Of a stretch of DNA of 37,731 bases, positions 860 through 13,888 are shown in pieces; position 1 is the first letter of the stretch, and the number at the start of each line of letters is the position of its first letter. The notes below the pieces were generated by a model. That model made no database searches. It worked only from the letters and a program-made list of their open reading frames with translations, and was not told the DNA's origin. This DNA comes from Solirubrobacteraceae bacterium (GTDB taxonomy: Bacteria > Actinomycetota > Thermoleophilia > Solirubrobacterales > Solirubrobacteraceae). The stretch lies in contig JAUYGN010000044.1 of the NCBI GenBank assembly GCA_030690545.1, forward strand, positions 1 through 37,731, given 5' to 3'. The translations under genes and the position numbers were made by a program.

Positions 860-969
860 TTGCTCTTCCCGGCGGCCGTCTTTCTCCTCATCTTCCTGCC
901 GGCGACAGTCGCCGTTTACTGGACTGTTCCAGCACGGATGCGGATCGCGGTCCTGCTCGTCGCCAGCTA
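855..969. repeat. 115-bp segment nearly identical to 10048-10162 (5' end of MBOAT copy 1)
   Basis: By direct comparison this segment and 10048-10162 match at 113 of 115 positions; the only differences are at 907-908. It spans the start codon and the first 36 codons of each MBOAT gene. Even unusual low-GC codons (GTTTACTGGACTGTTCCA) are shared. From 970 onward the two genes differ at many third codon positions. Confidence 0.9.
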
Positions 970-2260
970 TGCCTTCTACCTCAGCTGGAACCCCGTCTAC
1001 GGGCTGCTGCTCGCATCCAGCACCGTCGCCAACTACGCGATCGCACGCGCGATCCCGGACTCCCCACACCCCAAACGCCTGCTCACGCTGGGCATCGTCA
1101 TCAACCTCAGCGTCCTCGCCTTCTTCAAGTACGCCGGCTTCCTGTCAAGCGCCGGCGCCGACCTGCTCGGCTGGCTCGGCGCCGACACCTCGGGCTTCGA
1201 CGGCCTCGACATCCTCCTCCCACTCGCGATCAGCTTCTTCACCTTCGAGATGATCAGCGTCCTGATCGACACCTACCGCCGCGACGTCCGCGTCGACAAC
1301 TTCCTCGTCTTCGCGACCTACAAGGCCTACTTCCCCAAGCTCGTCTCAGGACCGATCACCCGCTACCGCGAGCTCGCCCCACAGCTCCTGCGCCCAGCAC
1401 CGCTGACCTTCGAGCGCTTCCAATCCGGCCTCGCGCTATTCACGCTCGGCCTCGCCACCAAAGTCGCACTCGCCGACAACCTCGCCGTCCCCGCCGACCG
1501 CGCCTTCGCCGACCCCAGCACCGCCAGCGCCCACGTCATGGCCGTCGGCCTCGGCGCCTTCGGCCTACAGATCCTCTTCGACTTCGCCGCCTACACCACG
1601 ATGGCCCGCGGCGCCTCACGCATGCTCGGCCTCGAGCTCCCGCTGAACTTCCGCTACCCCTACGGCTCCGCCAGCCCATCAGAGTTCTGGCGACGCTGGC
1701 ACATCACCCTCTCGCGCTGGCTACGCGACTACCTCTACATCCCACTCGGCGGCAACCGCAAGGGCAAGCTGCTGACCTACCGCAACCTCATCATCACGAT
1801 GATCCTCGGCGGACTATGGCACGGCGCCGGCTGGCAATTCGCCGCCTGGGGCGCCCTACACGGCACCTTCCTCGCGCTGTCGCACGCCCTGCGCGGACGC
1901 ATCACCAACCCCTCCCCCCTCCTACGCCTCGGCGGCGCACTGACCACCCTCAGCGCCGTCTACTTCGCCTGGATCTTCTTCCGCGCCGACTCGATCGGCG
2001 CCGCCCTCGACGCGATCAACACCCTCACCGCACTACCAACCGAATCGCCACGCACCCTCCTGCTCGCCCCACTCGCCGCCACCGCACTGATCCTCGCCAG
2101 CTGGACCATGCCACGCCTCGCCAACCACGCACGCCGACTCGCAGCACGCAACGCCCGCCTACGCCCAATCGCCATCGCCACCGTCACACTCGCCTGCTGG
2201 ATCACCGCCATCACCCTCTCACGCTCCAGCCTCGCCCCCTTCGTCTACTTCGAATTTTGA
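860..2260 (+). CDS. MBOAT-family membrane O-acyltransferase (AlgI/DltB-like), copy 1
   Basis: This 466-residue polytopic protein belongs to the membrane-bound O-acyltransferase family, which passes acyl groups across the membrane to extracytoplasmic glycans (AlgI for alginate, DltB for teichoic acid). Family signatures are plain: the block SEFWRRWHITLSRWLRDYLY followed by IPLGGNRKG, and the catalytic-region histidines in GLWHGAGW and ALHG. Length is typical of AlgI/DltB. I place the start at TTG 860 because the duplicate at 10053 begins at the same TTG and similarity ends just upstream. It is followed after 37 bp by an SGNH partner gene. Codon use is odd: between about 1000 and 2250 the gene prefers C- and A-ending codons (CTC, CTA, CCA, GCA), while its duplicate and neighbours prefer CTG, CCG and GCG. 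The donor substrate cannot be read from sequence; acetyl or aminoacyl are both possible. Confidence 0.93.
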   Translation: MLFPAAVFLLIFLPATVAVYWTVPARMRIAVLLVASYAFYLSWNPVYGLLLASSTVANYAIARAIPDSPHPKRLLTLGIVINLSVLAFFKYAGFLSSAGADLLGWLGADTSGFDGLDILLPLAISFFTFEMISVLIDTYRRDVRVDNFLVFATYKAYFPKLVSGPITRYRELAPQLLRPAPLTFERFQSGLALFTLGLATKVALADNLAVPADRAFADPSTASAHVMAVGLGAFGLQILFDFAAYTTMARGASRMLGLELPLNFRYPYGSASPSEFWRRWHITLSRWLRDYLYIPLGGNRKGKLLTYRNLIITMILGGLWHGAGWQFAAWGALHGTFLALSHALRGRITNPSPLLRLGGALTTLSAVYFAWIFFRADSIGAALDAINTLTALPTESPRTLLLAPLAATALILASWTMPRLANHARRLAARNARLRPIAIATVTLACWITAITLSRSSLAPFVYFEF

Positions 2261-2268
2261 CCGGCCGC
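2255..2268. repeat. Junction motif shared with 11448-11461
   Basis: TTTTGACCGGCCGC covers the MBOAT stop codon and the bases after it. In copy 2 the identical 14-mer at 11448-11461 contains the overlapping TTG start of the SGNH partner. Here the TTG is followed by a short frame that ends at a TGA near 2299-2301, so it is a relic of that overlapping start. Homology between the two loci stops just after it. Confidence 0.8.
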
Positions 2269-2297
2269 ACACCACTCACCACCCTCGCGAGCCTGCC

Positions 2298-3362
2298 TTG
2301 AGCCACCCTCGGACACTGCTGCTCTGCGCCGGCTACATGGCGCTGCTGGTGATCGCCGCCGTGGCGGCCGACCGCGTCATCGCCAACCGGACGATCCCCA
2401 ACCCCGGCACCTTCGTCCCGGCCTACCGCTCCTTCCAGGAGTTCTTCGCGGGCGAGAAGCTGCGCCAGGTCGACGAGGTCGGAGGCCTTCCGTCGGTCTT
2501 CATCGGCAACTCGCGGACGGTCTTCGGCGTCGACCCGCTGGTCTTCGACAGGTCCGCTCGCGCAGGCGGGGCGCGGATCGCGTCGTACAACCTCGCGATG
2601 CCCACCGTCGACCCGCGCTTCTGGCCGTTGTTCTTCGGGGACTACTACGCCGAGCGAGCGCCCGAGCGGGTGCTGTACGGGATCACGGCGCGCGACATGG
2701 ACGCGCGCAACACGTCCGCCGAGGCCTACCAGGCCGCGTTCCTGGCGAGCCCCGGGTTCGCGAACCGCAACCGCTCGGGCATCTGGAAGCAGGCCGAGGA
2801 GGTGCTGGCGCAGATGTACACGCTGCGCGGGCGCGTGGAGGAGACGATCCGCTTCAACCGGCGCGACTTCTTCCGGCTCGCCGGTCAGCGCGACCGCCTG
2901 CGCCAGTACACGCTCGCCAACGCACGCGGCCACTCGGCGTTCCCGGCGCGCTACACGAAGCCCGAGAGCCTGCTGCTCCGCGAGCGCGAACGCTACGCCG
3001 GACGGGTGGACGGCAACCGGCTGCGGCCGGCAAGGGACAGGATCCACGCGCTCGAGCAGCTGCACCGCTGGGTGCGCGCGCACGGCGGCTGCCTGACCTT
3101 CTTCACCCTGCCCGTCTACTACGACCCCGAGCCGTGGGGCACGGAGGCGATGCGCCGCGACCTGGCCCGGCTCATGCGCAGGCTCGTGCGAGCGCTCCCG
3201 GGCACGGACTTCGTCGACGTCGGCGATCGGCTCCAGCGCAGCTACACGGTCAAGGAGTTCGGCGACCCCGACCACCTCAACGCGCGCGGCGCGGAGCGAT
3301 TCTCCGCCGACCTCGCGAACGCACTGGCCCCCACGCTGGGGCGCGGCTGCGGCGGCCCGTGA
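2298..3362 (+). CDS. Membrane-anchored SGNH-like protein, DltD/AlgX-type partner of MBOAT copy 1
   Basis: The 354-residue product has one N-terminal membrane anchor (about residues 6-26, LLLCAGYMALLVIAAVAAD) and an extracytoplasmic domain with SGNH hydrolase landmarks. These are the nucleophile block IGNSRTVFGV near residue 70 and the C-terminal D-x-x-H block (DPDHLNARG) near residue 323. Proteins of this layout sit next to MBOAT genes as DltD, AlgX/AlgJ or PatB and complete O-acyl transfer to the glycan outside the membrane. The start is a TTG; no better in-frame start gives the complete anchor. Its stop overlaps the GTG of the flippase gene (GTGA). It resembles the protein at 11450-12490 across its length, but far less closely than the two MBOATs resemble each other. 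Substrate is unknown. Confidence 0.85.
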   Translation: MSHPRTLLLCAGYMALLVIAAVAADRVIANRTIPNPGTFVPAYRSFQEFFAGEKLRQVDEVGGLPSVFIGNSRTVFGVDPLVFDRSARAGGARIASYNLAMPTVDPRFWPLFFGDYYAERAPERVLYGITARDMDARNTSAEAYQAAFLASPGFANRNRSGIWKQAEEVLAQMYTLRGRVEETIRFNRRDFFRLAGQRDRLRQYTLANARGHSAFPARYTKPESLLLRERERYAGRVDGNRLRPARDRIHALEQLHRWVRAHGGCLTFFTLPVYYDPEPWGTEAMRRDLARLMRRLVRALPGTDFVDVGDRLQRSYTVKEFGDPDHLNARGAERFSADLANALAPTLGRGCGGP

Positions 3363-5011
3363 CGGACGACGCCGCAGGGCCGGCAGCGAGATCGCCGCTC
3401 GAGGGCGGACCCCCCGCGCAGCACGGCGAGCAAGAGGGCTCGCTCCCCGGACCGGCCGTGGCCGGGCTGGCCGGGACGCCGCCCGGACGGCAGCGCAGCG
3501 CGATCGACGACGCCTCGGTGATCACGGCCGCGGCCTACGCCGCTCAGGTCCTCACCTTCTTCGCCGGGCTGATCCAGAAGGGACTGCTGGGCCCCGTCGG
3601 GACGGGCTACTGGGCGCTGATGCAGTCCTTCTGGCAGATCTCGAAGGTCGTGTCGGCCGGCGCCTTCGACGGGACCGGCCGGCAGATCCCCCTCTACCGC
3701 GGTCGCAGGGACTACGCCGGGGCGGCGGCCGTCTCGGACACCGGGTTCTCGTTCTCGCTCGTCGCGATGGCGGTGCTCGGCCTCGTCGTCACGAGCTTCG
3801 CGCTCGCGTTCGGCTCCGATTGGGCGCCGGAGATCCGCTTGGGCCTCGTGCTGCTCGGCGTGACCGGTCCGCTGCGCTGGCTCGGGGACGCGCACGAGGT
3901 GCTGCTGCACGCCACCCGCCGGTTCCGGCCGGCGTCCGTGGCGACGGTGCTGCAGGCGGTCGTCGCGCTGACCGCGCAGACCGCGCTCGTCGTCGCGTTC
4001 GGCTTCTACGGCATGTTCGCCGGCGTCGTGCTGGCCACGCTCGTCTCGCTCGCGTACTACGCGCGGATCGGCGTGACGAGCCTGCGGCGCCCGGCCTTTC
4101 GCTTCCGCGTCGAGCGCTCGCGCCTGGGGGAGCTCGTCGCCTTCGGCCTGCCGATCATGGTCTTCGGCCAGCTCTGGCTGCTGTTCATGGGGATCGACGT
4201 GCTGATCATCGCCGGCTTCATCGACGTCGAGAGCCTCGGCTACTACGCGCTCGCGGTGTCGGTGACGAGCTACGTCATGCACCTGCCGCGCAGCGTCGGG
4301 CAGGCGCTCTTCCCGCGCATGGCCGAGCTCTTCGGCGCCACGGGCGACGTCAGCTCGCTGTCGCGCTACGTCGGCGAAGCGCAACGGCTGCTCGCCTACA
4401 TGCTCGTCCCGGTGTTCGTCGCCGGCGCGTACTTCGCGATCCCGGTGCTGATCCGCCATGCGCTGCCGGAGTTCGAGCCGGCGATCGACGTCGTCCACAT
4501 CATGGTCGCCGGGAGCTTCATCATGGCGCTCTGCAGCCTGCCGATCAAGGCAATGCTGACAGCGGGACGGCGGCGCGCGCTGATCGTGCTCGTCGCGCTC
4601 TGCCTGGGCGTCAACGCGAGCGCCAACTACGTCGCCGTGGCCGTGCTCGAGAAGGGAATCGAGGGCGCGGCGGTGGCGACGGTCGCCAGCTACCTGTTCG
4701 CCTTCCTCGTGACGAGCGGCTACGGGCTGACGATGATGATCGGCGCGCGCCGGGCGCTCGCCCACATCGGTGAGCTGCTGCTCGCGTTCGCCTACGTCTG
4801 CGGCGCCCTGTGGGCGATCGAGACGCTCGTCGGCGACGGCGCCGGCCCGCTGGTCGGCGACGCGGCGACGGCCGCCGCCAAGCTCGCGCTGTTCCTCGTC
4901 GCGCTGACGCCGTGGCTGATCGTCGCGCAGGTGCAGCTCGGCGGCCTCAGCCGGGTGGCTGCGGCGCTGCGCTCGGTGCTCGGCGCGCTGGCGCGCCGGC
5001 GCGGACGCTGA
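3359..5011 (+). CDS. Polysaccharide flippase, Wzx/MOP superfamily
   Basis: A 550-residue integral membrane protein with about 12-14 hydrophobic segments and the pattern of lipopolysaccharide/exopolysaccharide flippases. These move polyprenyl-diphosphate-linked repeat units to the outer face of the membrane. The first segment begins near residue 55 (ITAAAYAAQVLTFFAGL). The preceding 50 residues are a Gly/Pro/Ala-rich cytoplasmic tail, longer than usual. GTG 3359 is chosen because it overlaps the preceding stop (GTGA), implying translational coupling with the SGNH gene. A downstream start would shorten the tail without losing a membrane segment. It ends 16 bp from the convergent carrier-protein gene. 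It is the only flippase in the window and thus the likely exporter for the locus. Confidence 0.88.
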   Translation: MTDDAAGPAARSPLEGGPPAQHGEQEGSLPGPAVAGLAGTPPGRQRSAIDDASVITAAAYAAQVLTFFAGLIQKGLLGPVGTGYWALMQSFWQISKVVSAGAFDGTGRQIPLYRGRRDYAGAAAVSDTGFSFSLVAMAVLGLVVTSFALAFGSDWAPEIRLGLVLLGVTGPLRWLGDAHEVLLHATRRFRPASVATVLQAVVALTAQTALVVAFGFYGMFAGVVLATLVSLAYYARIGVTSLRRPAFRFRVERSRLGELVAFGLPIMVFGQLWLLFMGIDVLIIAGFIDVESLGYYALAVSVTSYVMHLPRSVGQALFPRMAELFGATGDVSSLSRYVGEAQRLLAYMLVPVFVAGAYFAIPVLIRHALPEFEPAIDVVHIMVAGSFIMALCSLPIKAMLTAGRRRALIVLVALCLGVNASANYVAVAVLEKGIEGAAVATVASYLFAFLVTSGYGLTMMIGARRALAHIGELLLAFAYVCGALWAIETLVGDGAGPLVGDAATAAAKLALFLVALTPWLIVAQVQLGGLSRVAAALRSVLGALARRRGR

Positions 5012-5027
5012 CGCTGACGCCGGGCGT

Positions 5028-5288
5028 TCAAGCCTGCTCGGCGATGAAGCGCGAGAACGGGCCGATCGCGCGCAGCCGCTCGGGCTCGAGCTCCTCGAAG
5101 TCCACCTCGATCGCGAAGCGGGCCTCGACCGCGGCGATGATCTCCAGCATGCCCAGCGAGTCGATCAGGCCGGCATCGATCAGGTCGAGGTCGTCGGCGA
5201 CGCCCTCCGATGCGCGACCGCTGTCGGCGAGCGCGGGCGCGAGCTCGTCGAGCACGACGGCACGGACGGCTTCGGCGGTGACGTTCAT
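5028..5288 (-). CDS. Acyl/aminoacyl carrier protein, DltC-like
   Basis: This 86-residue acidic four-helix carrier protein has the phosphopantetheine attachment motif GLIDSLGMLEII; the Ser of DSLG is the modified residue, around residue 44. The following stretch AVEARFAIEV matches the layout of D-alanyl carrier proteins (DltC) and other stand-alone peptidyl carriers. Its ATG overlaps the stop of the adenylation gene (ATGA), so the two are co-translated and very likely partners: the adenylating enzyme loads an amino acid onto this Ser. There is no thioesterase or condensation domain nearby, so the loaded group is probably delivered to a membrane acyltransferase (the MBOATs at 860 or 10053), as in the Dlt pathway. 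A fatty-acid ACP is less likely because no fatty-acid genes are present. Confidence 0.9.
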   Translation of the reverse strand: MNVTAEAVRAVVLDELAPALADSGRASEGVADDLDLIDAGLIDSLGMLEIIAAVEARFAIEVDFEELEPERLRAIGPFSRFIAEQA

Positions 5289-6910
5289 TCGTCCTCCAGG
5301 ATCGCCGCCAGCGCGGCGCGGTCGGTCTTGCCGTTGGGGTTGAGCGGAAGCGCGTCGAGCGCATGGATCCGCCGCGGGACCATATGGGCGGGCAGGATCG
5401 CGCGCAGCCGGCCGCGCACGGCGGCCGGCTCGACGCCGGCGCCCGCGACGAACGCCTCGATCCCGTCGACGCCGACGTCGGTGCGCGGCCAGCCGAGCGC
5501 CGCGACCGCGTCGACGCCGGCCGCCTCGCGCAGCGCCGCCTCGACCTCGCCGAGCTCGATCCGCACGCCGCGCACCTTGACCTGGTCGTCGCGACGCCCG
5601 AGATAGGCGATCGGGGCCCCGCCCGGCGCGGGGCGGCGCACGACGTCGCCGGTGCGGTAGTGGACCTCGTCGCGGCCCGGCGGCACGACGTAGGCGAGCG
5701 CGGTGCGTTCCGGGTCGTCCCAGTAGCCGAGCGTCACCTGCGGCCCCCGCACGAGCAGCTCGCCGACCTCACCGGGCGCCACCTCGCGCAGCTCGGCGTC
5801 GACGATCACGACGCCGAGGTTGGGAAGCGGATGGCCGATCGGGACGATCCCGCGCTCGCACTCGGCCGGTGACGTGCTCGCGTCGAAGCGGTACAGCGTG
5901 CAGTCGACGGTCGCCTCGGTCGGGCCGTAGAGGTTCTCGACCGTCGAGCCGGGCGCCGCCGCGCCCCACGCCCGCGCGACCTCCAGCGGCAGCGGCTCGC
6001 CGGCGAACAGGCTCCAGCGCAGGTGGGGGTAGCTCCCCGGCTTCAGCGCTCCGAGCCGGCGCATGAAGATCGCCACCGAGGGCACCGAGAACCACACGGT
6101 CAACCGCGCCTCGCGCAGGTAGCGGCCCGGGTTGATCAGCGTCCTGGAGGACGGGCAGCAGACGCACGCGCCGCGCTCCCAGGCGACGAACATGTCGAAG
6201 ACCGAGTTGTCGAACGTCAGGTCGTGCGTCTGCGAGAAGCGGTCGTGCTCGTCGATCGCGTAGCGCTCGACGAGCGTGTCGACGTAGTTGGGCACGTTGC
6301 GATGGGCGACCATCACTCCCTTCGGCTGCCCCGTGCTCCCGGAGGTGAACAGCAGGTAGGCGATCGCGTCGGGATCGGCGGCGACCGGCGCCCACGACGA
6401 CGCCGGCTCGAGCTCGCGCGCCCCGACGACGCGCCGGCCCGGCAGGCGCTCGGCCAGCTCGGCGGCGCGCACGTCGTCGTGGTCGGGCGCGACGATCACC
6501 CGCGGGCCGTCGCCGCCCGCCCCGCCGAGGACGTCGGGCAGCTGCTCGGCCGACGCGTCGTCGACGACGAGCGCCGCGCAGCGCGAGCGCAGCAGCATCG
6601 TGCGCGTGCGCGCCGGCGGCAGCGTGCGGTTGAGCGGCACGTAGCCGTGGCCGTGCATGAGCACCCCGAGCAGGCCCGCGAACGCCGTCGCGCTGCGATG
6701 CGCGAAGACCGCCGTCAGCGCCGGGGCGTGTCCTCCGCCCGCCGCCTCGCGAGCGAGCGTCGCGGCGATCGCCTGCGCGCGCTCGCGCAGGCCGGCGTAG
6801 CTGTAGGTCTCGCCGGCGACCTCGAGCGCGGGGCGCTCCGGAAAGGCCTCGGCGCTGCGGAGGAACCCGCGCTGCAGGCTGCGTGGTCGCGTGCCGCGAG
6901 CGTTCGTCAT
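5285..6910 (-). CDS. Stand-alone amino-acid adenylation enzyme (DltA-like / NRPS A-domain)
   Basis: A single-domain 541-residue AMP-forming ligase. The core motifs appear in order: A3 LLFTSGSTGQPKGV near residue 186, A4 with FDNSVFD, A5 NLYGPTEATVD near 325, A7 YRTGD near 418, A8 GRRDDQVKVRGVRIELGE near 436, and A10 NPNGK near 523 with the catalytic Lys. The Asp of FDNSVFD is the residue that binds the alpha-amino group in amino-acid-activating enzymes, so the substrate is probably an amino acid. Hand alignment to GrsA gives pocket residues D-N-F-F-L-A-L-V-D. The region TVWFSVPSV and FAGEPLP resembles DltA, but the Cys of DltA (PSFxxxC) aligns with Met here. The ATG at 6910 overlaps the upstream methyltransferase stop, and its own stop overlaps the carrier start. 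Substrate identity is open. Confidence 0.92.
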   Translation of the reverse strand: MTNARGTRPRSLQRGFLRSAEAFPERPALEVAGETYSYAGLRERAQAIAATLAREAAGGGHAPALTAVFAHRSATAFAGLLGVLMHGHGYVPLNRTLPPARTRTMLLRSRCAALVVDDASAEQLPDVLGGAGGDGPRVIVAPDHDDVRAAELAERLPGRRVVGARELEPASSWAPVAADPDAIAYLLFTSGSTGQPKGVMVAHRNVPNYVDTLVERYAIDEHDRFSQTHDLTFDNSVFDMFVAWERGACVCCPSSRTLINPGRYLREARLTVWFSVPSVAIFMRRLGALKPGSYPHLRWSLFAGEPLPLEVARAWGAAAPGSTVENLYGPTEATVDCTLYRFDASTSPAECERGIVPIGHPLPNLGVVIVDAELREVAPGEVGELLVRGPQVTLGYWDDPERTALAYVVPPGRDEVHYRTGDVVRRPAPGGAPIAYLGRRDDQVKVRGVRIELGEVEAALREAAGVDAVAALGWPRTDVGVDGIEAFVAGAGVEPAAVRGRLRAILPAHMVPRRIHALDALPLNPNGKTDRAALAAILEDE

Positions 6911-7740
6911 CCGCCGTCGGCCGGCGAGTGCCAGGCGACGAGCGTCGTGGCGTTGCGCGGGTTGACGCCCATCAGCTCCGGTCGTACGGCATCGATCCGC
7001 AGGCGGCCCGCGCGCTCGGCGTCGCGCACGAGCGCGACGAGGTTCCGGTTGTAGCCGTGCTGCTCGGCGTACTCGCGCGAGCTGCCCTGCCGAGCGTGGC
7101 CGCCGACCTGCCAGCCGACCGGCTCGAAGTGCAGGCACGTCACGGTCTCGGCCAGATCGGCGATCGCGTCGATCACGGCCGGCGACAGCTCGGGCAGCTG
7201 CTCGATGCTGTGGCCGGTGAAGACGACGGCCTCGCGCGCGCGGCCGAGCGCGGCCAGGCTCGGAGCCTCGTAGTCGAACTCGAGCGAGCGGAAGCGCAGC
7301 TCGGGATCCAGGCCGGCGAGCCGCGCGGCCGTCTGGCGCCCGGCTTCGGTCAGCTCGGCGCCGACGTAGAGCGCGTCGCGCGGACCGCCCGCCAGCCACG
7401 TGCCGAGGATGTGCCAGCCCCAGCCGGAGCCGAGCTCGACGACGAGGTCGGTCTGCGGGGTGCAGGCGTCGAGCACCGCCTCGACGGCCATCGCCTGCAG
7501 CGCGCCGAAGGCGAGGCTGCGCGGCAGCGTCAGCGGCGCGCCCTCGAGGATGGCGTCGTGCGGCTCGAGGCCGTCGCCGGGATGGGCGTAGGCGCGCACG
7601 ACGCGGGCATGGATGCGGGCCAGCCCCGCCGCGGTGCCCTCGGCTTCGATCTCGCGTTCGACGAGGCGCTGCACCGCGGGCCACTTCTGCTCGCCGTACT
7701 CGCGCTCGACGCGCTCTCGGGTTCGGGCCGTGGCGGTCAC
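6907..7740 (-). CDS. SAM-dependent methyltransferase-like protein, first gene of the adenylation/carrier operon
   Basis: The 277-residue product has a class I methyltransferase core: motif I VVELGSGWGWHI at about residue 104, an acidic end of strand 2 (YVGAELTEAG), and later strands VVFTGHSIEQL and VTCLHFEPVGWQ. I choose GTG 7740 (VTATARTRERVE) because residues upstream of it have no domain-like character and because it leaves a 53-bp divergent promoter region. The stop overlaps the ATG of the adenylation gene (ATGA). The position suggests it modifies either the aminoacyl substituent or the sugar that receives it. The His-Ser-Ile-Glu motif after strand 4 is typical of a loose methyltransferase family of unknown targets. 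Specificity is not known. Confidence 0.8.
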   Translation of the reverse strand: MTATARTRERVEREYGEQKWPAVQRLVEREIEAEGTAAGLARIHARVVRAYAHPGDGLEPHDAILEGAPLTLPRSLAFGALQAMAVEAVLDACTPQTDLVVELGSGWGWHILGTWLAGGPRDALYVGAELTEAGRQTAARLAGLDPELRFRSLEFDYEAPSLAALGRAREAVVFTGHSIEQLPELSPAVIDAIADLAETVTCLHFEPVGWQVGGHARQGSSREYAEQHGYNRNLVALVRDAERAGRLRIDAVRPELMGVNPRNATTLVAWHSPADGG

Positions 7741-7773
7741 GCGTCGCAGCTTACCTGCGGGCTGGCGGCACAC

Positions 7774-7788
7774 CGCGTACCGTACGCG
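7774..7788. promoter_or_regulatory. Perfect 15-bp inverted repeat in a divergent promoter region
   Basis: CGCGTAC-C-GTACGCG is a perfect palindrome with a single-base centre at 7781. It lies in the 53-bp gap between the divergent methyltransferase operon (start 7740, -) and the TylF-like gene (start 7794, +), six bases before the ATG of the latter. Its size and place fit an operator for a dimeric repressor controlling both directions. GC-rich DNA makes short palindromes common, so this is a candidate only. Confidence 0.4.
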
Positions 7789-7793
7789 CGCAC

Positions 7794-8456
7794 ATGATCG
7801 AGCTACCAGACTTCTCACGCAGCTGGGAGCACGAGAACGGCTTCTACCTCTCGTGCGACGTCTCGCGGATGAGCAAGCTGCTCGCGCACTACGAGCTGCT
7901 CAAGAGCGTCGCGGGATTGCCCGGCGCGATCGTCGAATGCGGCGTGTTCAAAGGCGCCTCGCTGGTGCGCTTTGCGATGTTCCGCGACCTGCTCGGCACC
8001 GCCGCGGCCAAGCCGATCATCGGGTTCGACACGTTCGGCGCCTTCCCGCCGACCGCGTTCGAGGCCGACCGCGAGGTCCGCGAGCGCTTCGTGGCGGGCG
8101 CCGGCGAGTCGAGCATCGGCATCGACCAGCTCCGGCAGGTCCTGAGCCACAAGGGGACCGACCGTCACGTCGAGCTGATCGCCGGAGACATCGTCGAGAC
8201 CGTGCCCGAGTACGTCGCGCGTCATCCCGAGCTGCGGATCTCGCTGCTCAACCTGGATACCGACATCCACGAGCCGGCGGTCGTGATCCTCGAGCACCTG
8301 TATCCGCGGATCGTTCGCGGCGGCGTCCTGCTGCTCGACGACTACGGCACGTTTCCCGGCGAGACGGCGGCCGTCGACGAGTTCTTCGCCGGTCAGGACG
8401 TCACGATCGAGAAGCTGCCGCTCGCGATGACCCCCTGCTTCGTGCGCAAGCGCTAG
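7794..8456 (+). CDS. TylF/MycF-family sugar O-methyltransferase
   Basis: The 220-residue protein matches the TylF (macrocin O-methyltransferase) family, SAM- and Mg-dependent enzymes that methylate hydroxyls of deoxysugars and of capsule or O-antigen sugars. Diagnostic stretches are IVECGVFKGASLVRFA (SAM loop, about residue 46), IGFDTFGAFPPTAF (about 79), and LLNLDTDIHEPAVVILEHL (about 158), followed by RGGVLLLDDYG. The acidic residues of the last two blocks are the family's metal ligands. Length is slightly short of the usual 230-260 but no block is missing. It starts at a clear ATG and is followed 51 bp later by the secreted SGNH hydrolase. It probably O-methylates a sugar of the repeat unit. 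Confidence 0.88.
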   Translation: MIELPDFSRSWEHENGFYLSCDVSRMSKLLAHYELLKSVAGLPGAIVECGVFKGASLVRFAMFRDLLGTAAAKPIIGFDTFGAFPPTAFEADREVRERFVAGAGESSIGIDQLRQVLSHKGTDRHVELIAGDIVETVPEYVARHPELRISLLNLDTDIHEPAVVILEHLYPRIVRGGVLLLDDYGTFPGETAAVDEFFAGQDVTIEKLPLAMTPCFVRKR

Positions 8457-8507
8457 CGCCGGATAGCGGCGGCAAGGCGTACGACGTCTGTCATCCTCCG
8501 GGCGCCG

Positions 8508-10025
8508 ATGCAGCTCCGCCGCTCCGTCCGCCTTGCCGCCCTCGCGGCGTCCGTCGCCGTCGGGCTGTGCGGTGCGGCGACGCCGGGCCAGGCGCAGGCG
8601 CCGCGCTCGATGGCGGCGCTCGGCGATTCGCTGTCGGTCGGGCTGTACAGCGGTGCGCCGTGCCTGCCGGCGGCCCTCTGCCCGCAGAACTCGTGGTCGA
8701 CCGGAACCAACGCCGCCGTCGACAGCCACGTGCTGCGCCTCGCGCGCCTCGGCGCGGCGCCGACGGCGCACAACTTCGCCGTGTCGGGGGTCAAGGTGAT
8801 CGACCTCGGCAGCGCCAACAACCAGGCGCAGAAGGCGATCAACGCGGGCGTCGAGTACGTCACGATCATGATCGGCCTCAACGACTCCTGCCGCGAGACC
8901 GTGGCAGCGATGACGTCGGTCGCGACGTTCCGCGCGCAGTTCGCCGCCGGCCTGGGCAAGCTCGTCGCGGGACTGCCCGGCGCGCGGATCCTCGTCGCGA
9001 GCATCCCCGACGTGGAGCGTCTGCGCATGATCCTCAAGGACAGCCCGAGCGCGCGCGCGGAGTGGGCCGCCAAGCAGGTCTGCTCGGTCCTGCTCGAAGA
9101 CCCGCTGTCGACCGCGCCAGCGGTCGTCGTGCGGCGCGCCGCGGCGCGCCAGCGCGCGATCGACTTCAACCGCCAGCTGGAGGAGGTCTGCGCGCAGTAT
9201 CCGACCTGTCGCTACGACGACGGGGCGGTCTTCGGGTGGGCGTTCCAGCCGGCGCACTTCGGGACCTACGACTACTTCCACCTCTCGGCCGCCGGCCAGG
9301 CCGGCCTGGCGGCGCTCACCTACCCGCTCGCCTTCCCGTCGGCCTCGGCTCCGCCGCCGATCGTCACACCCCCGCCTGCGGTGGCCGACCCACCGCCCCC
9401 ACCGGCCGCGCGCTTTCCCGCCAAGCTGAAGCTCAAGCGCGCCGCGATCGCCGGCGGCAGGCTCGATGCGCTGCTGGGCGTCAGCGGACGGGCGACCGGA
9501 GCGCTGCGCGTCGAGTACCACAGCGCCGCGACGACGCGGGTCTTCCGGGTCGCGCTCGGGCCGGCGCGCGAGGGCGAGAAGAACGTCAAGCTGCTGCGCG
9601 CGCTGAGCGGCGCCCAGCGACGCACCCCGACCGGGATCCTGACCGTGACCTACAGCGGCAACCAGCGGGTGCTCGGCGACCTGCTGCGCGCACGCGCCGC
9701 CAATCGCCGCAGCCTGCTCAGGCGCACGTCGCTGTCGCTTGCCGGCGCGCGGCTGCGGGTCGCCGGCACCGTCGCCCCCGCGGTCCGCGGAGTCGTGCGG
9801 CTGCGGGTCACCTACACCGACGCCAGCGGCGCGGGCGCGGAGTGGTCGCATGCGGCGAGGATCGCCGCCGGTCGCTGGCGCGCCGACCGCGCGCTGCCCG
9901 CTGCCGCGAGCACCGACCCCAACGCCTACCTGACGCTGCAGTTCACCGGCGACCTGGCCGCCCGCGGCGGACCGCACCGCGGCGAGCAGGACGGCAGAGG
10001 GCTGGGCAACCTGCCCGTCAGCTGA
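8508..10025 (+). CDS. Secreted SGNH/GDSL hydrolase with C-terminal beta-rich extension
   Basis: 505 residues. A signal peptide occupies residues 1 to about 31 (hydrophobic LAALAASVAVGLCGAA, then QAQA). The catalytic domain has block I ALGDSLSVG (Ser near residue 41), the oxyanion Gly in NFAVSG, block III IGLNDSC with Asn, and block V DYFHLSAAG with the Asp/His pair. Six Cys are spaced as in secreted actinobacterial SGNH esterases with three disulfides (C..LC, DSC, VCS, VC..TC). After residue 285 a Pro-rich linker leads to about 200 residues of beta-type sequence (RLDALLGVSGRATGALRVEY and a second similar unit) that look like Ig-like adhesion modules. It is closely paralogous to the protein at 36744. 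Likely role: esterase acting on acyl groups of the secreted glycan or envelope. The substrate is inferred only. Confidence 0.88.
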   Translation: MQLRRSVRLAALAASVAVGLCGAATPGQAQAPRSMAALGDSLSVGLYSGAPCLPAALCPQNSWSTGTNAAVDSHVLRLARLGAAPTAHNFAVSGVKVIDLGSANNQAQKAINAGVEYVTIMIGLNDSCRETVAAMTSVATFRAQFAAGLGKLVAGLPGARILVASIPDVERLRMILKDSPSARAEWAAKQVCSVLLEDPLSTAPAVVVRRAAARQRAIDFNRQLEEVCAQYPTCRYDDGAVFGWAFQPAHFGTYDYFHLSAAGQAGLAALTYPLAFPSASAPPPIVTPPPAVADPPPPPAARFPAKLKLKRAAIAGGRLDALLGVSGRATGALRVEYHSAATTRVFRVALGPAREGEKNVKLLRALSGAQRRTPTGILTVTYSGNQRVLGDLLRARAANRRSLLRRTSLSLAGARLRVAGTVAPAVRGVVRLRVTYTDASGAGAEWSHAARIAAGRWRADRALPAAASTDPNAYLTLQFTGDLAARGGPHRGEQDGRGLGNLPVS

Positions 10026-10047
10026 GGCGCGCAACGCTCTAGTCTTC

Positions 10048-10162
10048 CGCCGTTGCTCTTCCCGGCGGCCGTCTTTCTCCTCATCTTCCTGCCGGCGACC
10101 ATCGCCGTTTACTGGACTGTTCCAGCACGGATGCGGATCGCGGTCCTGCTCGTCGCCAGCTA
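10048..10162. repeat. 115-bp segment nearly identical to 855-969 (5' end of MBOAT copy 2)
   Basis: Second member of the 113/115 match described for 855-969. It begins five bases before the TTG start at 10053. The equivalent upstream contexts are unrelated: the 3' end of an SGNH hydrolase gene here, and a divergent intergenic region at the other copy. Confidence 0.9.
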
Positions 10163-11453
10163 CGCCTTCTATCTGAGCTGGAACCCGGTCTACGGGCTGC
10201 TGCTGGCGTTCAGCACCGTCGCCAACTACGCGATCGTGCGGGCGATCCCGGACTCGCCGCAGCCAAAGCGGCTGCTCGCACTGGGCATCGTCGTCAACCT
10301 CGGCGTGCTGGCGTTCTTCAAATACGCCGGGTTCCTGTCAGGTGCCGGCGCCGACCTGCTCGGCTGGCTGGGCGCGGACACGTCGGGCTTCGACGGCCTC
10401 GACATCCTGCTGCCGCTGGCGATCAGCTTCTTCACGTTCGAGATGATCAGCGTGCTGGTCGACACCTACCGGCGCGACGTCCGCGTCGGCGGCTTCCTCG
10501 TCTTCGCGACGTACAAGGCCTACTTCCCGAAGCTCGTCTCAGGGCCGATCACGCGCTATCGCGAGCTCGCGCCGCAACTCCTGCGCCCGGCGCCGCTGAC
10601 CTTCGAGCGCTTCCAGTCCGGCCTGGCGCTGTTCACGCTGGGTCTCGCGACGAAGGTCGCGCTGGCCGACAACCTCGCCGTCCCCGCCGACCGCGCCTTC
10701 GCGGATCCCAGCGCCGTCAGCGCCCATGTGATGGCGGTCGGCCTGGGCGCCTTCGGCCTGCAGATCCTGTTCGACTTCGCGGCCTACACGACGATGGCGC
10801 GCGGCGCCTCGCGCATGCTCGGCCTCGAGCTGCCGCTGAACTTCCGCTACCCGTACGGATCGGCGAGCCCGTCGGAGTTCTGGCGGCGCTGGCACATCAC
10901 GCTGTCGCGCTGGCTGCGCGACTACCTGTACATCCCGCTCGGCGGCAACCGCAAGGGCCGGCTGCTGACGTACCGCAACCTGATCATCACGATGGTGCTG
11001 GGCGGGCTGTGGCATGGTGCGGGCTGGCAGTTCGCCGCCTGGGGCGCGCTGCACGGCATGTTCCTGGCGCTGTCGCACGCGCTGCGCGGACGCTTCGCCG
11101 ACCCCTCGCCGGTGCTGCGCTTCTGCGGCGCGTTGATCACGCTCAGCGCGGTCTACTTCGCCTGGATCTTCTTCCGCGCCGATTCGATCGGCGCCGCCCT
11201 CGACGCGATCGGCACGCTCGCCGCGCTGCCGTCCGAGTCGCCGCGCACGCTGCTGCTCGCCCCGCTCGCCGCCAGCGCGCTGATCCTCGCCAGCTGGGCG
11301 ATGCCATGGCTCGCGGCGCGCGCGCGTGAGCTGGCGGCGCGCGACATCCGCCTGCGCCCGGTCGCCGTCGGCGGCATCACGCTGGCCTGCTGGCTGGTCG
11401 CGATCAGCCTCTCGCGCTCGAGCCTCGCCCCCTTCGTCTACTTCGAGTTTTGA
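10053..11453 (+). CDS. MBOAT-family membrane O-acyltransferase (AlgI/DltB-like), copy 2
   Basis: 466 residues, the same length as the protein at 860-2260, with about 40 substitutions by hand comparison (roughly 90% identity). The family blocks are all present: SEFWRRWHITLSRWLRDYLY, IPLGGNRKG, GLWHGAGW and ALHG. Substitutions cluster in the last 130 residues and in membrane segments, while the catalytic region is unchanged. Codon use here is that of the surrounding genes (CTG, GTG, CCG). The TGA at 11451 overlaps the TTG start of the SGNH partner at 11450, so the pair is translationally coupled. This tight arrangement looks ancestral, and copy 1 keeps a relic of it. Likely function: transfer of an acyl or aminoacyl group across the membrane to the polysaccharide. 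Confidence 0.93.
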   Translation: MLFPAAVFLLIFLPATIAVYWTVPARMRIAVLLVASYAFYLSWNPVYGLLLAFSTVANYAIVRAIPDSPQPKRLLALGIVVNLGVLAFFKYAGFLSGAGADLLGWLGADTSGFDGLDILLPLAISFFTFEMISVLVDTYRRDVRVGGFLVFATYKAYFPKLVSGPITRYRELAPQLLRPAPLTFERFQSGLALFTLGLATKVALADNLAVPADRAFADPSAVSAHVMAVGLGAFGLQILFDFAAYTTMARGASRMLGLELPLNFRYPYGSASPSEFWRRWHITLSRWLRDYLYIPLGGNRKGRLLTYRNLIITMVLGGLWHGAGWQFAAWGALHGMFLALSHALRGRFADPSPVLRFCGALITLSAVYFAWIFFRADSIGAALDAIGTLAALPSESPRTLLLAPLAASALILASWAMPWLAARARELAARDIRLRPVAVGGITLACWLVAISLSRSSLAPFVYFEF

Positions 11454-12490
11454 CCGGCCGCGCGCTGCTCACCTGCTTTGGCTACGTCGCGCTGCTGGCA
11501 CTGCTGGCGGTCGGTGCCGACCGCCTGATCGCCTCGCGCGTCTTTCAGAGCCCGGGCGAGCTCGTCCCGGCCTACCGCGCCTTCCAGGAGCCGTCGGTCA
11601 GCGTCAAGCTGCACGACCTCGAGCAGGCCTCGGGGACCTTCGACACGCTCGTCCTCGGCAACTCACGGACGCTGTTCGGCGTCCGGCCCGACATCGTCGA
11701 TCGCGTGCTGGCCGACCGCGGGATCGCGCAGCGGTCCTTCAACCTGGCGATGCCGACGGTCGACGTCCGCTTCTGGCCGCGGTTCATGCGCGACTACTAC
11801 GACCGCCCCGCGCCCAAGCGCCTGCTGCTCGGCGTCATCCCCCGCGACCTGGACGCCCGCAACGTGCAGGCGGTGACCCAGATGAACGCGTTCTTCGCGA
11901 GCTCCGGCTTCGACAACCGCGACCGCAGCGCCGCGTGGCGCGGCGCGGAGGAGTGGCGATCGCGGATCTTCACGATGCACGGGCGCTTCAACGAGGTCCG
12001 CCGCGCGGGCATCGGCGGTCTGCTGCGCGGGGACGGCCTCGCGCCACCGCAGATCCGCGTCTCCGAGCGCGGATGGGGCCAGTTCGCGCCCGGCGTCGCG
12101 CCGAGCAAGCGCGAGCTCGCCGAGCAGGCGCGCCGGCTGGCTGTCCGCAGCGGCTCGCTGCGCCTCGCCGTCGGCGACGAGCAGATCGGCGCGCTGCGGC
12201 AGCTCGATCGCTGGATACGCGCGCGCGGTGGGTGCCTGACGCTGTTCACCGTTCCGGTGCTGTACGACCGCGAGCCGTGGGGCACGGTCGAGGTGCGGCG
12301 CGCGTTCGAGCGGACGATGCGCGCCTTCGTCCGGGCCAACCCGCGCGTGGGCTACCTCGATCTCGGCCCGCGGACCGAGGACGAGTACGGACTGGCGGAC
12401 TTCGGCGACGGCGACCATCTCGACCCAAGCGGAGCGGGCCGGCTCTCGCGCCAGCTCGCCGACGCGCTCGCCGAGGATCCGCGTTGCTGA
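11450..12490 (+). CDS. Membrane-anchored SGNH-like protein, DltD/AlgX-type partner of MBOAT copy 2
   Basis: 346 residues starting at TTG 11450, inside the end of the MBOAT gene. An N-terminal anchor (ALLTCFGYVALLALLAVGA) precedes an extracytoplasmic domain with LGNSRTLFGV near residue 70 and DGDHLDPSGAG near the C-terminus, the Ser and Asp/His positions of SGNH enzymes. Shared landmarks with the protein at 2298 include NLAMPTVD, RDLDARN, RARGGCLT and a matching YDxEPWGT. Overall the two are only moderately similar, unlike their MBOAT partners. In Dlt- and alginate-type systems such a protein accepts or transfers the acyl group outside the membrane. Different SGNH partners with nearly the same MBOAT suggest different acceptor sites or sugars. 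That is inference. Confidence 0.86.
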   Translation: MTGRALLTCFGYVALLALLAVGADRLIASRVFQSPGELVPAYRAFQEPSVSVKLHDLEQASGTFDTLVLGNSRTLFGVRPDIVDRVLADRGIAQRSFNLAMPTVDVRFWPRFMRDYYDRPAPKRLLLGVIPRDLDARNVQAVTQMNAFFASSGFDNRDRSAAWRGAEEWRSRIFTMHGRFNEVRRAGIGGLLRGDGLAPPQIRVSERGWGQFAPGVAPSKRELAEQARRLAVRSGSLRLAVGDEQIGALRQLDRWIRARGGCLTLFTVPVLYDREPWGTVEVRRAFERTMRAFVRANPRVGYLDLGPRTEDEYGLADFGDGDHLDPSGAGRLSRQLADALAEDPRC

Positions 12491-12556: not shown

Positions 12557-13888
12557 TCAGTCGACCGCGTGATCGGCCGCGCGCAGCAGGTCGTGCTCAC
12601 GCAGGCGGTCGGCGACCGCGCGCAGCTCCCAGATCGGGCGGTCGGTGGCCGTCGCGACCGCGAGCAGGTCGGCGCTCCCGTCGCAGCGGCTGAGCAGCTG
12701 CAGCATGTCCTGCAGCCCGCGCTGAGCGTGGGCGTCCTGCCCGCCGCCCGTCGTCGGGTACAGCCCGCGGCGGGACAGCTGCGGCTCGCCGTGCAGGACG
12801 GTGCCGGTCAGCGTCTCGTTCGCCTCGAGGGTCTCGACCACGCGCCAGTACGCCGCCAGGCTCTCCCCCAGCGCGTCCGCCGTGACGAAGCTCAGGTCGT
12901 CGAGCGACGTGTGGTACTCGGGGTTGGTGGCGTACATCGTGCGCATCAGCGAGCCGACCGGCAGATCGAAGCCCGGCGAGCAGAACTGACGCTCGTCGCT
13001 GCCGGCGGGGACGAAGTCCAGCACTCGTGCCACGGGTTGCGTGTGCGCCAGCACATGCTCGGCGGCGCGGTCGGCCAGCGAGCGTCCCCGGCGCGACCGC
13101 TTGTAGGTGAACGGCGCCGGATCGCCCGCGCAGGTGACGACGTAGCCGGCCACGAGCCGCTCGCGCAGCCGCTCGCCGAAGCGCGCCAGGTAGGCGAGCG
13201 ATCCGATCGTCTCGGGCCCGAACACGAAGCGGTAGGTGTGCCGCGGCGGCTCGCCGCGCTCGCGCATCAGCCGCGCCAGCTGGGACACGAGGACCGGCCC
13301 CGACAGCTCGTTGTTGGCCATCGACGGATGGCAGCAGTACGTCCAGAAGAGCACCTCGCCCTCCCCGCTGCCCTCGACGACGAGCTCGCCGAGCTCGACC
13401 TCCCCCGGCTCGAGGTCGGCGTCGATCCGCACCTCGTACTCGCCCGGCGCCAGCGCGCGGCGCACCTCGTCGGCAAGGCAGAAGCCCCATTGCTCCTGGT
13501 AGTAGGAGGTGCGGTAGGGAATCGCGGTCGGCCGGTCGGGGAGGCTGTGCAGGTGACCCTGCAGCTCGTCGAGCGAAAGTCGGCGATGGACCGGGACGCT
13601 GTAGCTCACGACGTGCAGCGAGCTGTCGCTCAGCGCGACGACGACCGCGCCGTCCGGTCCCTTGACCCACGCGTCGCGGATCGTCCATTCACGCGGGATC
13701 TCCCAGTCGAGCACCCGTTCGCCCGTCGCGAAGCGATGGCGCCGCAGCGGCCCGCTGACGCCCTCCAGCGCGTCGAGCGTCGCGCGGTACGCGGGCCCGG
13801 TCAGGCTGCGCGGCAGCGGGAACAGCTCGGTCGCCAGCGCGTGCATCTCGGCGCCGAGCGCCGTGAAGTCCGGGGCGCCGGCGCTCAC
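12557..13888 (-). CDS. DUF4910-type aminopeptidase-like protein
   Basis: 443 residues, beginning at GTG 13888 where it overlaps the upstream stop (GTGA). The N-terminal motif ALATELFPLPRSLTG and the sequence YYQEQWGFCLADE are hallmarks I associate with the DUF4910/DUF2172 aminopeptidase-like family, which has a zinc-peptidase fold related to M28. Probable metal ligands lie in TYCCHPSMANNELSG (His, Asn/Glu), in PETIGS and near the end in NPEYHTSLDDLSFV. The last 60 residues (RCDGSADLLAVA, then RPIWELRAVADRLREHDLL) look like the winged-helix tail of that family. These genes are often found in surface-glycan loci, where an amidohydrolase or deacylase role on amino sugars has been supposed; no activity can be read here. 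It is coupled to the AAC(3)-like gene, suggesting opposite or successive steps on one amino group. Confidence 0.75.
   Translation of the reverse strand: MSAGAPDFTALGAEMHALATELFPLPRSLTGPAYRATLDALEGVSGPLRRHRFATGERVLDWEIPREWTIRDAWVKGPDGAVVVALSDSSLHVVSYSVPVHRRLSLDELQGHLHSLPDRPTAIPYRTSYYQEQWGFCLADEVRRALAPGEYEVRIDADLEPGEVELGELVVEGSGEGEVLFWTYCCHPSMANNELSGPVLVSQLARLMRERGEPPRHTYRFVFGPETIGSLAYLARFGERLRERLVAGYVVTCAGDPAPFTYKRSRRGRSLADRAAEHVLAHTQPVARVLDFVPAGSDERQFCSPGFDLPVGSLMRTMYATNPEYHTSLDDLSFVTADALGESLAAYWRVVETLEANETLTGTVLHGEPQLSRRGLYPTTGGGQDAHAQRGLQDMLQLLSRCDGSADLLAVATATDRPIWELRAVADRLREHDLLRAADHAVD

What the first reader, a model, noticed from the sequence alone, without database searches (positions are those of the whole stretch)
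860..12490. A Dlt-like aminoacylation set embedded in a polysaccharide locus, with duplicated membrane steps
An amino-acid adenylation enzyme (5285-6910), its co-translated carrier protein (5028-5288), two MBOATs (860, 10053) and two membrane-anchored SGNH partners (2298, 11450) lie within 12 kb. These are the four part types of DltA/C/B/D, which attach D-Ala to teichoic acids. Here the set lies beside a flippase and methyltransferases, with no teichoic-acid genes, and the adenylation operon begins with a methyltransferase. The simplest reading is a pathway that puts an amino acid (perhaps methylated) on an exported glycan, with two alternative transfer branches. Family roles are established knowledge; the joint pathway is inference.
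Basis: partly seen in the sequence, partly recalled or inferred. Interest (0 to 1): 0.8.

Follow-up and report, generated by a model that had tools for sequence, protein, structure and literature searches.

The report
Two acylation modules, one capsule-type locus
A soil actinobacterium carries, in one exported-polysaccharide locus, an amino-acid-activating set and two membrane acyl-transfer pairs; the evidence favours two separate ways of decorating the sugar chain (one inside the cell on a sialic-acid-like sugar, one outside) rather than a second copy of the known D-alanine (Dlt) machine.

Summary
The genes described are real and correctly placed. Reading them as one Dlt-like pathway is only partly supported. 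No part reaches the curated DltA, DltB or DltC cut-offs. Both MBOATs carry the acyl-shuttle motif FxYxxF at their own C-terminus (FVYFEF). That is the AlgI/PatA, acyl-CoA-type architecture; DltB lacks the motif and borrows it from DltX. The closest adenylation-enzyme/carrier relatives (51-57% identity) lie in three genomes without such MBOATs, each near a cytoplasmic hexapeptide acyltransferase. Of 40 other actinobacterial loci with related MBOATs, none holds the adenylation enzyme and carrier. An adjoining contig carries a NeuB/PseI-like synthase, a PseF-PseG fusion and Kdo genes. A locus in a second Solirubrobacteraceae genome shares more than 20 reciprocal best hits; there the N-acyltransferase lies 57 bp from the adenylation gene. 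Best reading: enzyme, carrier and methyltransferase make an acyl-ACP for cytoplasmic N-acylation of a nonulosonic-acid-type sugar, while the MBOAT-SGNH pairs O-acylate the exported chain. The MBOAT-SGNH pair is truly duplicated, the MBOAT conserved and the SGNH diverged. A real Dlt-like link is not excluded.

The parts
860..2260 (+). MBOAT-1, acyl-shuttle motif FVYFEF at its C-terminus, WHG histidine (frame open from 803)
   Evidence: PF03062 113 bits; DltB model 148 against cut-off 375; 91% identical to MBOAT-2; motif scan
2298..3362 (+). SGNH-1, membrane-anchored acyltransferase partner of MBOAT-1 (GNSRT and GDPDH blocks)
   Evidence: alignment with SGNH-2, 48%; 42% to the G145 partner; fold support weak
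3458..5011 (+). Wzx-type flippase
   Evidence: PF13440 57 bits; reciprocal best hit in G145, 50%
5028..5288 (-). carrier protein (phosphopantetheine site DSL)
   Evidence: PF00550 27.8 bits; DltC model 23.4 against cut-off 52.35; ATGA overlap with the adenylation gene
5285..6910 (-). stand-alone amino-acid adenylation enzyme, pocket code DNFFLALVDK
   Evidence: TIGR01733 341.7 bits, over cut-off; closest solved structures 8K4R and IdnL7 6AKD; code by alignment
6907..7740 (-). class I SAM methyltransferase, first gene of the MT-AL-ACP operon
   Evidence: model and fold search; 49% homologue directly after NeuB in L040
7794..8456 (+). TylF-type methyltransferase, divergent from the operon
   Evidence: PF05711 66.6 bits
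8508..10025 (+). GDSL esterase-like protein; role in the system uncertain
   Evidence: PF13472 43.9 bits
10053..11453 (+). MBOAT-2, acyl-shuttle motif FVYFEF at its C-terminus
   Evidence: PF03062 112 bits; DltB model 148.8 against 375; motif scan
11450..12490 (+). SGNH-2, partner of MBOAT-2, TTGA overlap
   Evidence: 45% reciprocal best hit to the G145 SGNH; junction
12557..13888 (-). DUF2172/DUF4910/HTH_47 protein, the family of Cj1295
   Evidence: PF16254 288.6 bits, PF09940, PF16221; 62% reciprocal best hit in G145; solved relative 3K9T
13885..14685 (-). AAC(3)-like N-acyltransferase, GTGA overlap with the DUF4910 gene
   Evidence: PF02522 109.8 bits; 52% reciprocal best hit beside AL-ACP in G145
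14711..15559 (+). methyltransferase of the polysaccharide locus
   Evidence: PF08241 61 bits
15559..16941 (+). Wzy/O-antigen-ligase-type polymerase
   Evidence: PF04932 56.7 bits
16938..18401 (+). undecaprenyl-phosphate sugar-phosphate transferase
   Evidence: PF02397 209.5 bits
1..714 (-). N-terminal part of a roughly 580-aa protein; its C-terminal part begins contig C67, which links the window to the NeuB, PseF-PseG and Kdo genes
   Evidence: both halves match G145:82661-84403; contig ends

Best explanation
The locus makes an exported Wzx/Wzy-type polysaccharide that probably contains Kdo and a nonulosonic-acid-type (pseudaminic/sialic-like) sugar, decorated by two separate acylation modules. 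Module 1 is cytoplasmic: the adenylation enzyme activates a small amino acid (or similar acid) and loads it on the carrier, the operon's methyltransferase methylates either the bound acyl group or the sugar, and the AAC(3)-like enzyme transfers the acyl group to an amino group of the sugar, the DUF4910 protein having removed or exchanged the acetyl group there (as proposed for C. jejuni Cj1295). Module 2 acts across the membrane: each MBOAT takes an acyl group, most likely acetyl from acetyl-CoA, onto the tyrosine of its own C-terminal FVYFEF and passes it to its SGNH partner for O-acylation of the exported chain. The pair is duplicated, with the same donor step and two diverged acceptor-side enzymes. 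Shown here: gene content, families, motifs, synteny, duplication. Inferred: every substrate, the direction of transfer, and the separation of the two modules.
For: (1) Both window MBOATs, and all 46 MBOATs examined, end in FxYxxF with a WHG histidine. PMC12148441 reports that DltB lacks this motif and uses DltX, while MBOATs with their own motif evidently use acyl-CoA. (2) No part reaches the DltA, DltB or DltC equivalog cut-off. (3) The closest adenylation-carrier relatives (51-57%) in G682, G760 and G626 have a hexapeptide-type acyltransferase right after the carrier (PF00132 shown for G626), and those genomes have no match to the window MBOAT (G760 is only 82% complete). (4) 0 of 40 other MBOAT neighbourhoods hold both AL and ACP. 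(5) AAC(3)-like and DUF4910 genes overlap in the window and both are reciprocal best hits in G145, where AAC(3) is divergent from, and 57 bp away from, AL-ACP. (6) Contig C67, which adjoins the window by a split gene, carries NeuB/PseI-like, PseF-PseG-like, KdsA, KdsB and KdsD-like genes. (7) The closest methyltransferase homologue (49%) follows NeuB in a Pse-type cluster with PseB-, PseC-, PseG- and PseF-like genes. (8) Cj1295, same domain family, is needed for 5-N-(2,3-di-O-methylglyceroyl) pseudaminic acid (PMC3068675, PMC6321876). (9) MBOAT copies: dN 0.05, dS 0.45; SGNH copies: dN 0.52, dS 0.64.
Against: The AAC(3)-like enzyme may simply use acetyl-CoA. DUF4910 genes in eight other actinobacterial loci have neither AAC(3) nor AL-ACP nearby, so the set is not obligatory. 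The window MBOAT-SGNH type occurs in only two genomes found here and both have AL-ACP in the locus, as Dlt-like coupling would predict; shared descent of the locus explains it equally well. NeuB, PseF and PseG homologues are below their equivalog cut-offs, so the sugar's identity is uncertain, and PseB/PseC were not searched for in this genome. The adjacency of C67 is inferred from one split gene, without sequence overlap.
Confidence: 0.5

Rival explanations
1. One reading: the carrier-bound (perhaps methylated) amino acid is handed to the MBOATs, passes via the fused shuttle tyrosine to SGNH-1 or SGNH-2 and ends as an ester on the exported glycan. A Dlt-like system without DltX, with two acceptor branches.
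For: All four part types lie within 12 kb. DltB is the best named and best solved relative of the MBOATs. In G145, the only other genome with this MBOAT-SGNH type, AL-ACP is in the same locus. A 4'-phosphopantetheine arm is common to CoA and carrier, so an MBOAT with its own shuttle could in principle accept either.
Against: AL-ACP relatives at 51-57% occur without MBOATs and beside hexapeptide acyltransferases. Genomes G027, G037 and G040 have distant AL-ACP pairs and no MBOAT at all. Self-shuttling MBOATs characterised so far use acyl-CoA (PMC12148441). In G145 the MBOAT pair is 18 kb from AL-ACP, whereas AAC(3) is 57 bp away. None of 40 other MBOAT loci has AL+ACP.
Confidence: 0.22
2. AL-ACP-MT makes an acyl group for a sugar other than the nonulosonate, for example an amino sugar of the Gfo/Idh (WlbA-like) branch or a hydroxyl, through an unidentified cytoplasmic acyltransferase; AAC(3) and DUF4910 are an unrelated acetylation/deacetylation pair.
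For: In G682 the orthologous pair lies in a locus with a Gfo/Idh gene and hexapeptide genes, and no NeuB hit in the stretch scanned; the sugar-nucleotide oxidoreductase is well conserved between the window and G145 (67%); DUF4910 loci elsewhere lack AL-ACP.
Against: The nearest homologue of the operon's methyltransferase sits beside NeuB; AAC(3) is adjacent to AL in G145; no hexapeptide acyltransferase was seen in the window.
Confidence: 0.2
3. AL-ACP-MT belongs to a small secondary metabolite (amino-acid-derived or formylated product) that only happens to sit inside the polysaccharide locus.
For: The closest solved relatives are natural-product enzymes (IdnL7); distant AL-ACP pairs go with luciferase-like monooxygenases and formyltransferases.
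Against: Those distant pairs also sit among epimerase, chain-length-protein and glycosyltransferase-like genes; no other natural-product genes were seen in the window; a non-orthologous AL-ACP occupies the corresponding G145 locus.
Confidence: 0.06

Closest known systems
C. jejuni flagellin-glycan set around Cj1295 (5-N-(2,3-di-O-methylglyceroyl) pseudaminic acid)
   Same: DUF2172/DUF4910 protein, neighbouring N-acetyltransferase gene (Cj1296/7), nonulosonate synthesis genes and acyl carrier proteins in one glycan locus (PMC3068675, PMC6321876, PMC6338021 for Cj1308); that Cj1307 is an amino-acid-activating enzyme and Cj1296/7 AAC(3)-like is from memory
   Different: Here the glycan is an exported Wzx/Wzy polysaccharide with Kdo genes, not flagellin; the acyl group is unknown; MBOAT-SGNH pairs are added
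Dlt system (DltA/B/C/D and DltX)
   Same: Same four part types: adenylation enzyme, carrier, MBOAT, SGNH
   Different: No DltX-type separate shuttle needed, shuttle motif fused to the MBOAT; all equivalog cut-offs missed; divergent operons; pocket code differs (Ala instead of the DltA Cys at 301, the latter from memory); no teichoic-acid genes seen in the window
PatA/PatB, AlgI/AlgJ/AlgX, WssH/WssI MBOAT-SGNH O-acetylation
   Same: Adjacent MBOAT and SGNH genes; C-terminal FxYxxF; invariant His; polysaccharide setting
   Different: Unit duplicated with diverged SGNH; lies with an adenylation-carrier operon; donor untested
AlmE/AlmF/AlmG glycine transfer to lipid A
   Same: Stand-alone adenylation enzyme plus carrier feeding an envelope glycan modification (AlmE, 4OXI, is among the solved relatives)
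   Different: Acyltransferase type differs; here AAC(3)-like or hexapeptide enzymes rather than the AlmG type (AlmG from general knowledge)
IdnL7/VinM-type stand-alone adenylation enzymes
   Same: Second-closest solved structure (6AKD); small L-amino-acid pocket; F239, F278, L299, A301 and L322 shared in the printed alignment
   Different: N and D in place of C217 and T318, two of the three residues tied to Gly/Ala/Ser selection (PMC11253843)

Membership tests
Dlt system | DltA equivalog score | tested here: not met
   219.8 bits against cut-off 559.85
Dlt system | DltC equivalog score | tested here: not met
   23.4 against 52.35 (TIGR01688) and 26 against 68
Dlt system | DltB equivalog score; shuttle motif supplied by DltX, not by the MBOAT | tested here: not met
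   148 and 148.8 against 375; FVYFEF at both MBOAT C-termini
Dlt system | DltD SGNH partner | tested here: inconclusive
   no family hit; poor model, weak Foldseek similarity to DltD and to PatB alike
Dlt system | genes in one operon | tested here: not met
   MT-AL-ACP on the minus strand, MBOAT-SGNH pairs on the plus strand
Dlt system | D-alanine substrate and teichoic-acid acceptor | not testable with these tools
   pocket code DNFFLALVDK lacks a Cys at 301; no teichoic-acid genes seen in the window, whole genome not searched for them
MBOAT-SGNH O-acyltransferase pair (AlgI/PatA type) | MBOAT domain with invariant His | tested here: met
   PF03062 over cut-off, WHG
MBOAT-SGNH O-acyltransferase pair (AlgI/PatA type) | C-terminal FxYxxF on the MBOAT | tested here: met
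MBOAT-SGNH O-acyltransferase pair (AlgI/PatA type) | adjacent SGNH protein with Ser and Asp/His blocks | tested here: inconclusive
   adjacent, GNSR and GDxDH conserved in both copies, but no family hit and fold only weakly supported
MBOAT-SGNH O-acyltransferase pair (AlgI/PatA type) | acyl-CoA donor | not testable with these tools
   needs biochemistry
Cj1295-type nonulosonate N-acyl remodelling | DUF2172/DUF4910 protein | tested here: met
   PF16254, PF09940, PF16221
Cj1295-type nonulosonate N-acyl remodelling | neighbouring N-acyltransferase | tested here: met
   PF02522, GTGA overlap
Cj1295-type nonulosonate N-acyl remodelling | nonulosonate synthase and CMP-transferase in the locus | tested here: met
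   on adjoining contig C67, homologues below equivalog cut-offs; on one contig with the rest in G145
Cj1295-type nonulosonate N-acyl remodelling | novel N-acyl group on the sugar | not testable with these tools
   needs MS/NMR
Cj1295-type nonulosonate N-acyl remodelling | DUF4910 regularly linked to AL-ACP | tested here: not met
   linked in the window and G145, not in eight other actinobacterial loci; linkage is therefore not a general rule, and the locus is compared with, not filed under, this set

The most novel reading that the evidence does not exclude
A carrier-fed MBOAT system outside the Dlt family: an MBOAT with its own fused shuttle tyrosine takes a methylated aminoacyl group from an acyl carrier and serves two different SGNH acceptor enzymes, putting amino acids on an exported, Kdo/nonulosonate-containing polysaccharide of a Solirubrobacteraceae bacterium.
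Probability: 0.18. Interest if true: 0.75.

Novelty: new variant of a known kind. Interest (0 to 1): 0.5.

Why it matters
If module 1 works as proposed, it gives the adenylation-carrier-N-acyltransferase route for uncommon N-acyl groups on nonulosonic-acid-type sugars a testable gene set outside Campylobacter, and places such sugars together with Kdo in an exported polysaccharide of an actinobacterium. The duplicated MBOAT-SGNH unit, with a nearly fixed donor step and a fast-changing acceptor step, is a clean case for asking what sets acceptor specificity. If instead the carrier feeds the MBOATs, the rule that self-shuttling MBOATs use acyl-CoA would have an exception.

Tried and rejected
A general DUF4910-AAC(3)-AL-ACP linkage was tested in eight other actinobacterial DUF4910 loci and not found. 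Conservation of the methyltransferase with AL-ACP was tested: none of its eight homologous loci carries AL; in L040 it is linked to NeuB instead. Recent gene conversion as the sole cause of MBOAT similarity was considered: dS of the MBOAT pair (0.45) is only a little below that of the SGNH pair (0.64), so joint duplication with different constraint suffices; only the first 50 codons look converted (pS 0.12). The SGNH model from a two-sequence alignment was too poor to decide between DltD-like and PatB/AlgJ-like. The adenylation substrate could not be fixed from the pocket code (L322, V330 and D331 resemble serine codes known from memory; the rest resembles IdnL7); a small amino acid is the only claim made. 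A literature search for adenylation-carrier enzymes in nonulosonate pathways gave nothing on point.
Full report
Observation. The window is contig 79 of a 3.53-Mb draft genome. It belongs to the same family as G172, whose contig 1 has the same length (169,129 bases) as a record titled Solirubrobacteraceae bacterium isolate Chersky.15_14. The two proteins called SGNH have no family hit; the case rests on their position, hydrophobic N-terminus and conserved GNSR and GDxDH blocks, since the structure model was poor. The operon's first gene is a class I SAM methyltransferase by fold.

Is it Dlt? None of the adenylation enzyme, carrier or MBOATs reaches the DltA, DltC or DltB equivalog cut-off. The most telling feature is the C-terminus of both MBOATs, FVYFEF. 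The paper PMC12148441 reports that DltB lacks the FxYxxF shuttle and obtains it from DltX, whereas MBOATs that carry it, such as PatA, use acyl-CoA and pass the acyl group via the tyrosine to an SGNH partner. All 46 MBOATs examined here, the window's included, carry the motif and a WHG histidine. This is an argument from architecture; it does not prove the donor.

Where are the relatives? A search of 349 genomes of the class with the adenylation enzyme found only three genomes with full-length 51-57% homologues. In each the carrier is next to the adenylation gene and a hexapeptide-type acyltransferase follows (PF00132 for one of them). None of the three has a match to the window MBOAT. More distant pairs (35-37%) sit with luciferase-like monooxygenases and often formyltransferases, and three of those genomes have no MBOAT at all. 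Conversely, 40 neighbourhoods of related MBOATs from other Actinobacteriota (up to about 10 kb each side, some cut short by contig ends) contained no adenylation-carrier pair; two had a lone, weak AMP-binding hit. The window's SGNH type was found in only one other of the order's 232 genomes, G145, apart from a marginal hit in G177.

The second locus. In G145 the MBOAT-SGNH pair lies in a large polysaccharide locus (contig 66, read from 36 to 110 kb). More than 20 proteins are reciprocal best hits with the window or its neighbour contig C67, among them MBOAT, SGNH-2, flippase, AAC(3)-like, DUF4910, Wzy-like, sugar transferase, Gfo/Idh, glycosyltransferases, NeuB-like, PseF-PseG-like, KdsA, KdsB and KdsD-like proteins. 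There the AAC(3)-like gene is divergent from the adenylation-carrier pair at 57 bp, and the MBOAT pair is 18 kb away. The adenylation enzyme there is only 33-36% identical with a different pocket code, DLLYLALNAK, as if the activated acid had been exchanged while the rest of the locus stayed.

The missing half of the window's locus. The window's first ORF is cut by the contig end; it matches the N-terminal part of a 580-aa G145 protein, and the first ORF of contig C67 matches the rest. C67 carries a NeuB/PseI-like synthase, a protein with PseF-like and PseG-like halves, two further methyltransferase-like genes, a GNAT gene, and KdsA and KdsB above their equivalog cut-offs with a KpsF-family isomerase. 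The join is inferred, not sequenced.

Mechanism. DUF4910 proteins appear to include Cj1295 of C. jejuni (DUF2172 domain, as in the window protein), needed for a 5-N-(2,3-di-O-methylglyceroyl) pseudaminic acid and proposed to cleave the N-acetyl group there (PMC3068675; domain assignment in PMC6321876). In that locus a neighbouring gene, Cj1296/7, is listed as an N-acetyltransferase and Cj1308 as an acyl carrier protein (PMC3068675; PMC6338021). The nearest methyltransferase homologue outside the window follows NeuB in a Pse-type cluster. The simplest joint reading is therefore a methylated acyl-carrier used by the AAC(3)-like enzyme in the cytoplasm, with the MBOAT-SGNH pairs as a second, extracytoplasmic O-acylation. 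The linkage of DUF4910 to AL-ACP is not general (0 of 8 other loci), which limits confidence.

Duplication. MBOAT-1 and MBOAT-2 are 91% identical (87% in DNA over 1.4 kb) while the SGNH partners are 47-48% identical. dN differs tenfold (0.05 against 0.52) with comparable dS (0.45 against 0.64), so a joint duplication with a constrained donor step and a diverging acceptor step is enough. dS estimates in such G+C-rich genes are rough.

Verdict. Observation confirmed; the single Dlt-like pathway is one possible reading (about 0.2), a two-module locus is better supported (about 0.5). Novelty: a new variant of known kinds.

Noticed in passing
G000 contig C67 (L115:9121-11770) and G145 contig 66 (L106:5918-10257): KdsA and KdsB (above equivalog cut-offs in C67) and a KpsF-family isomerase, i.e. 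a Kdo pathway, inside exopolysaccharide loci of actinobacteria (Solirubrobacteraceae), where Kdo is not expected.
   Followed up: partly
window 8508-10025 and 36834-37730: Two GDSL esterase-like paralogues in the same locus, the second cut by the contig end.
   Followed up: no
L050:9631-10344 (G006, same genus): A truncated, degraded homologue of the adenylation enzyme (49%, in-frame stop, altered ATP-binding motif) immediately upstream of a coiled-coil-type gene resembling those of the window.
   Followed up: partly
window 21102-22244 and 25732-28587 (minus strand): Two coiled-coil proteins that share an N-terminal region (WRRTVDRR.RPAKLK.GRLLRDFGY); function unknown.
   Followed up: no
G000 contig C51 (L054:4362-6801) and G006 contig 48 (L109:9590-12046): A third MBOAT with a different partner protein, in a setting conserved between two genomes of the genus, next to a cysteine-synthase-like gene.
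   Followed up: no
L051, L052, L053, L096, L097, L099: A recurrent Thermoleophilia gene set: luciferase-like monooxygenase, adenylation enzyme with pocket code DLFFLCLIAK, carrier and often a formyltransferase, several within polysaccharide loci; looks like an undescribed formylated or oxidised aminoacyl modification.
   Followed up: partly
L094:16063-19528 (G682): Two tandem adenylation enzymes (57% and 51% to the window's) with different pocket codes and one shared carrier.
   Followed up: no
window 23960-25723: Protein kinase-domain gene inside the polysaccharide locus.
   Followed up: no
L040:6116-7060: PylC-like ATP-grasp gene inside a pseudaminic-acid-type cluster, a possible alternative way to attach an amino acid.
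   Followed up: no
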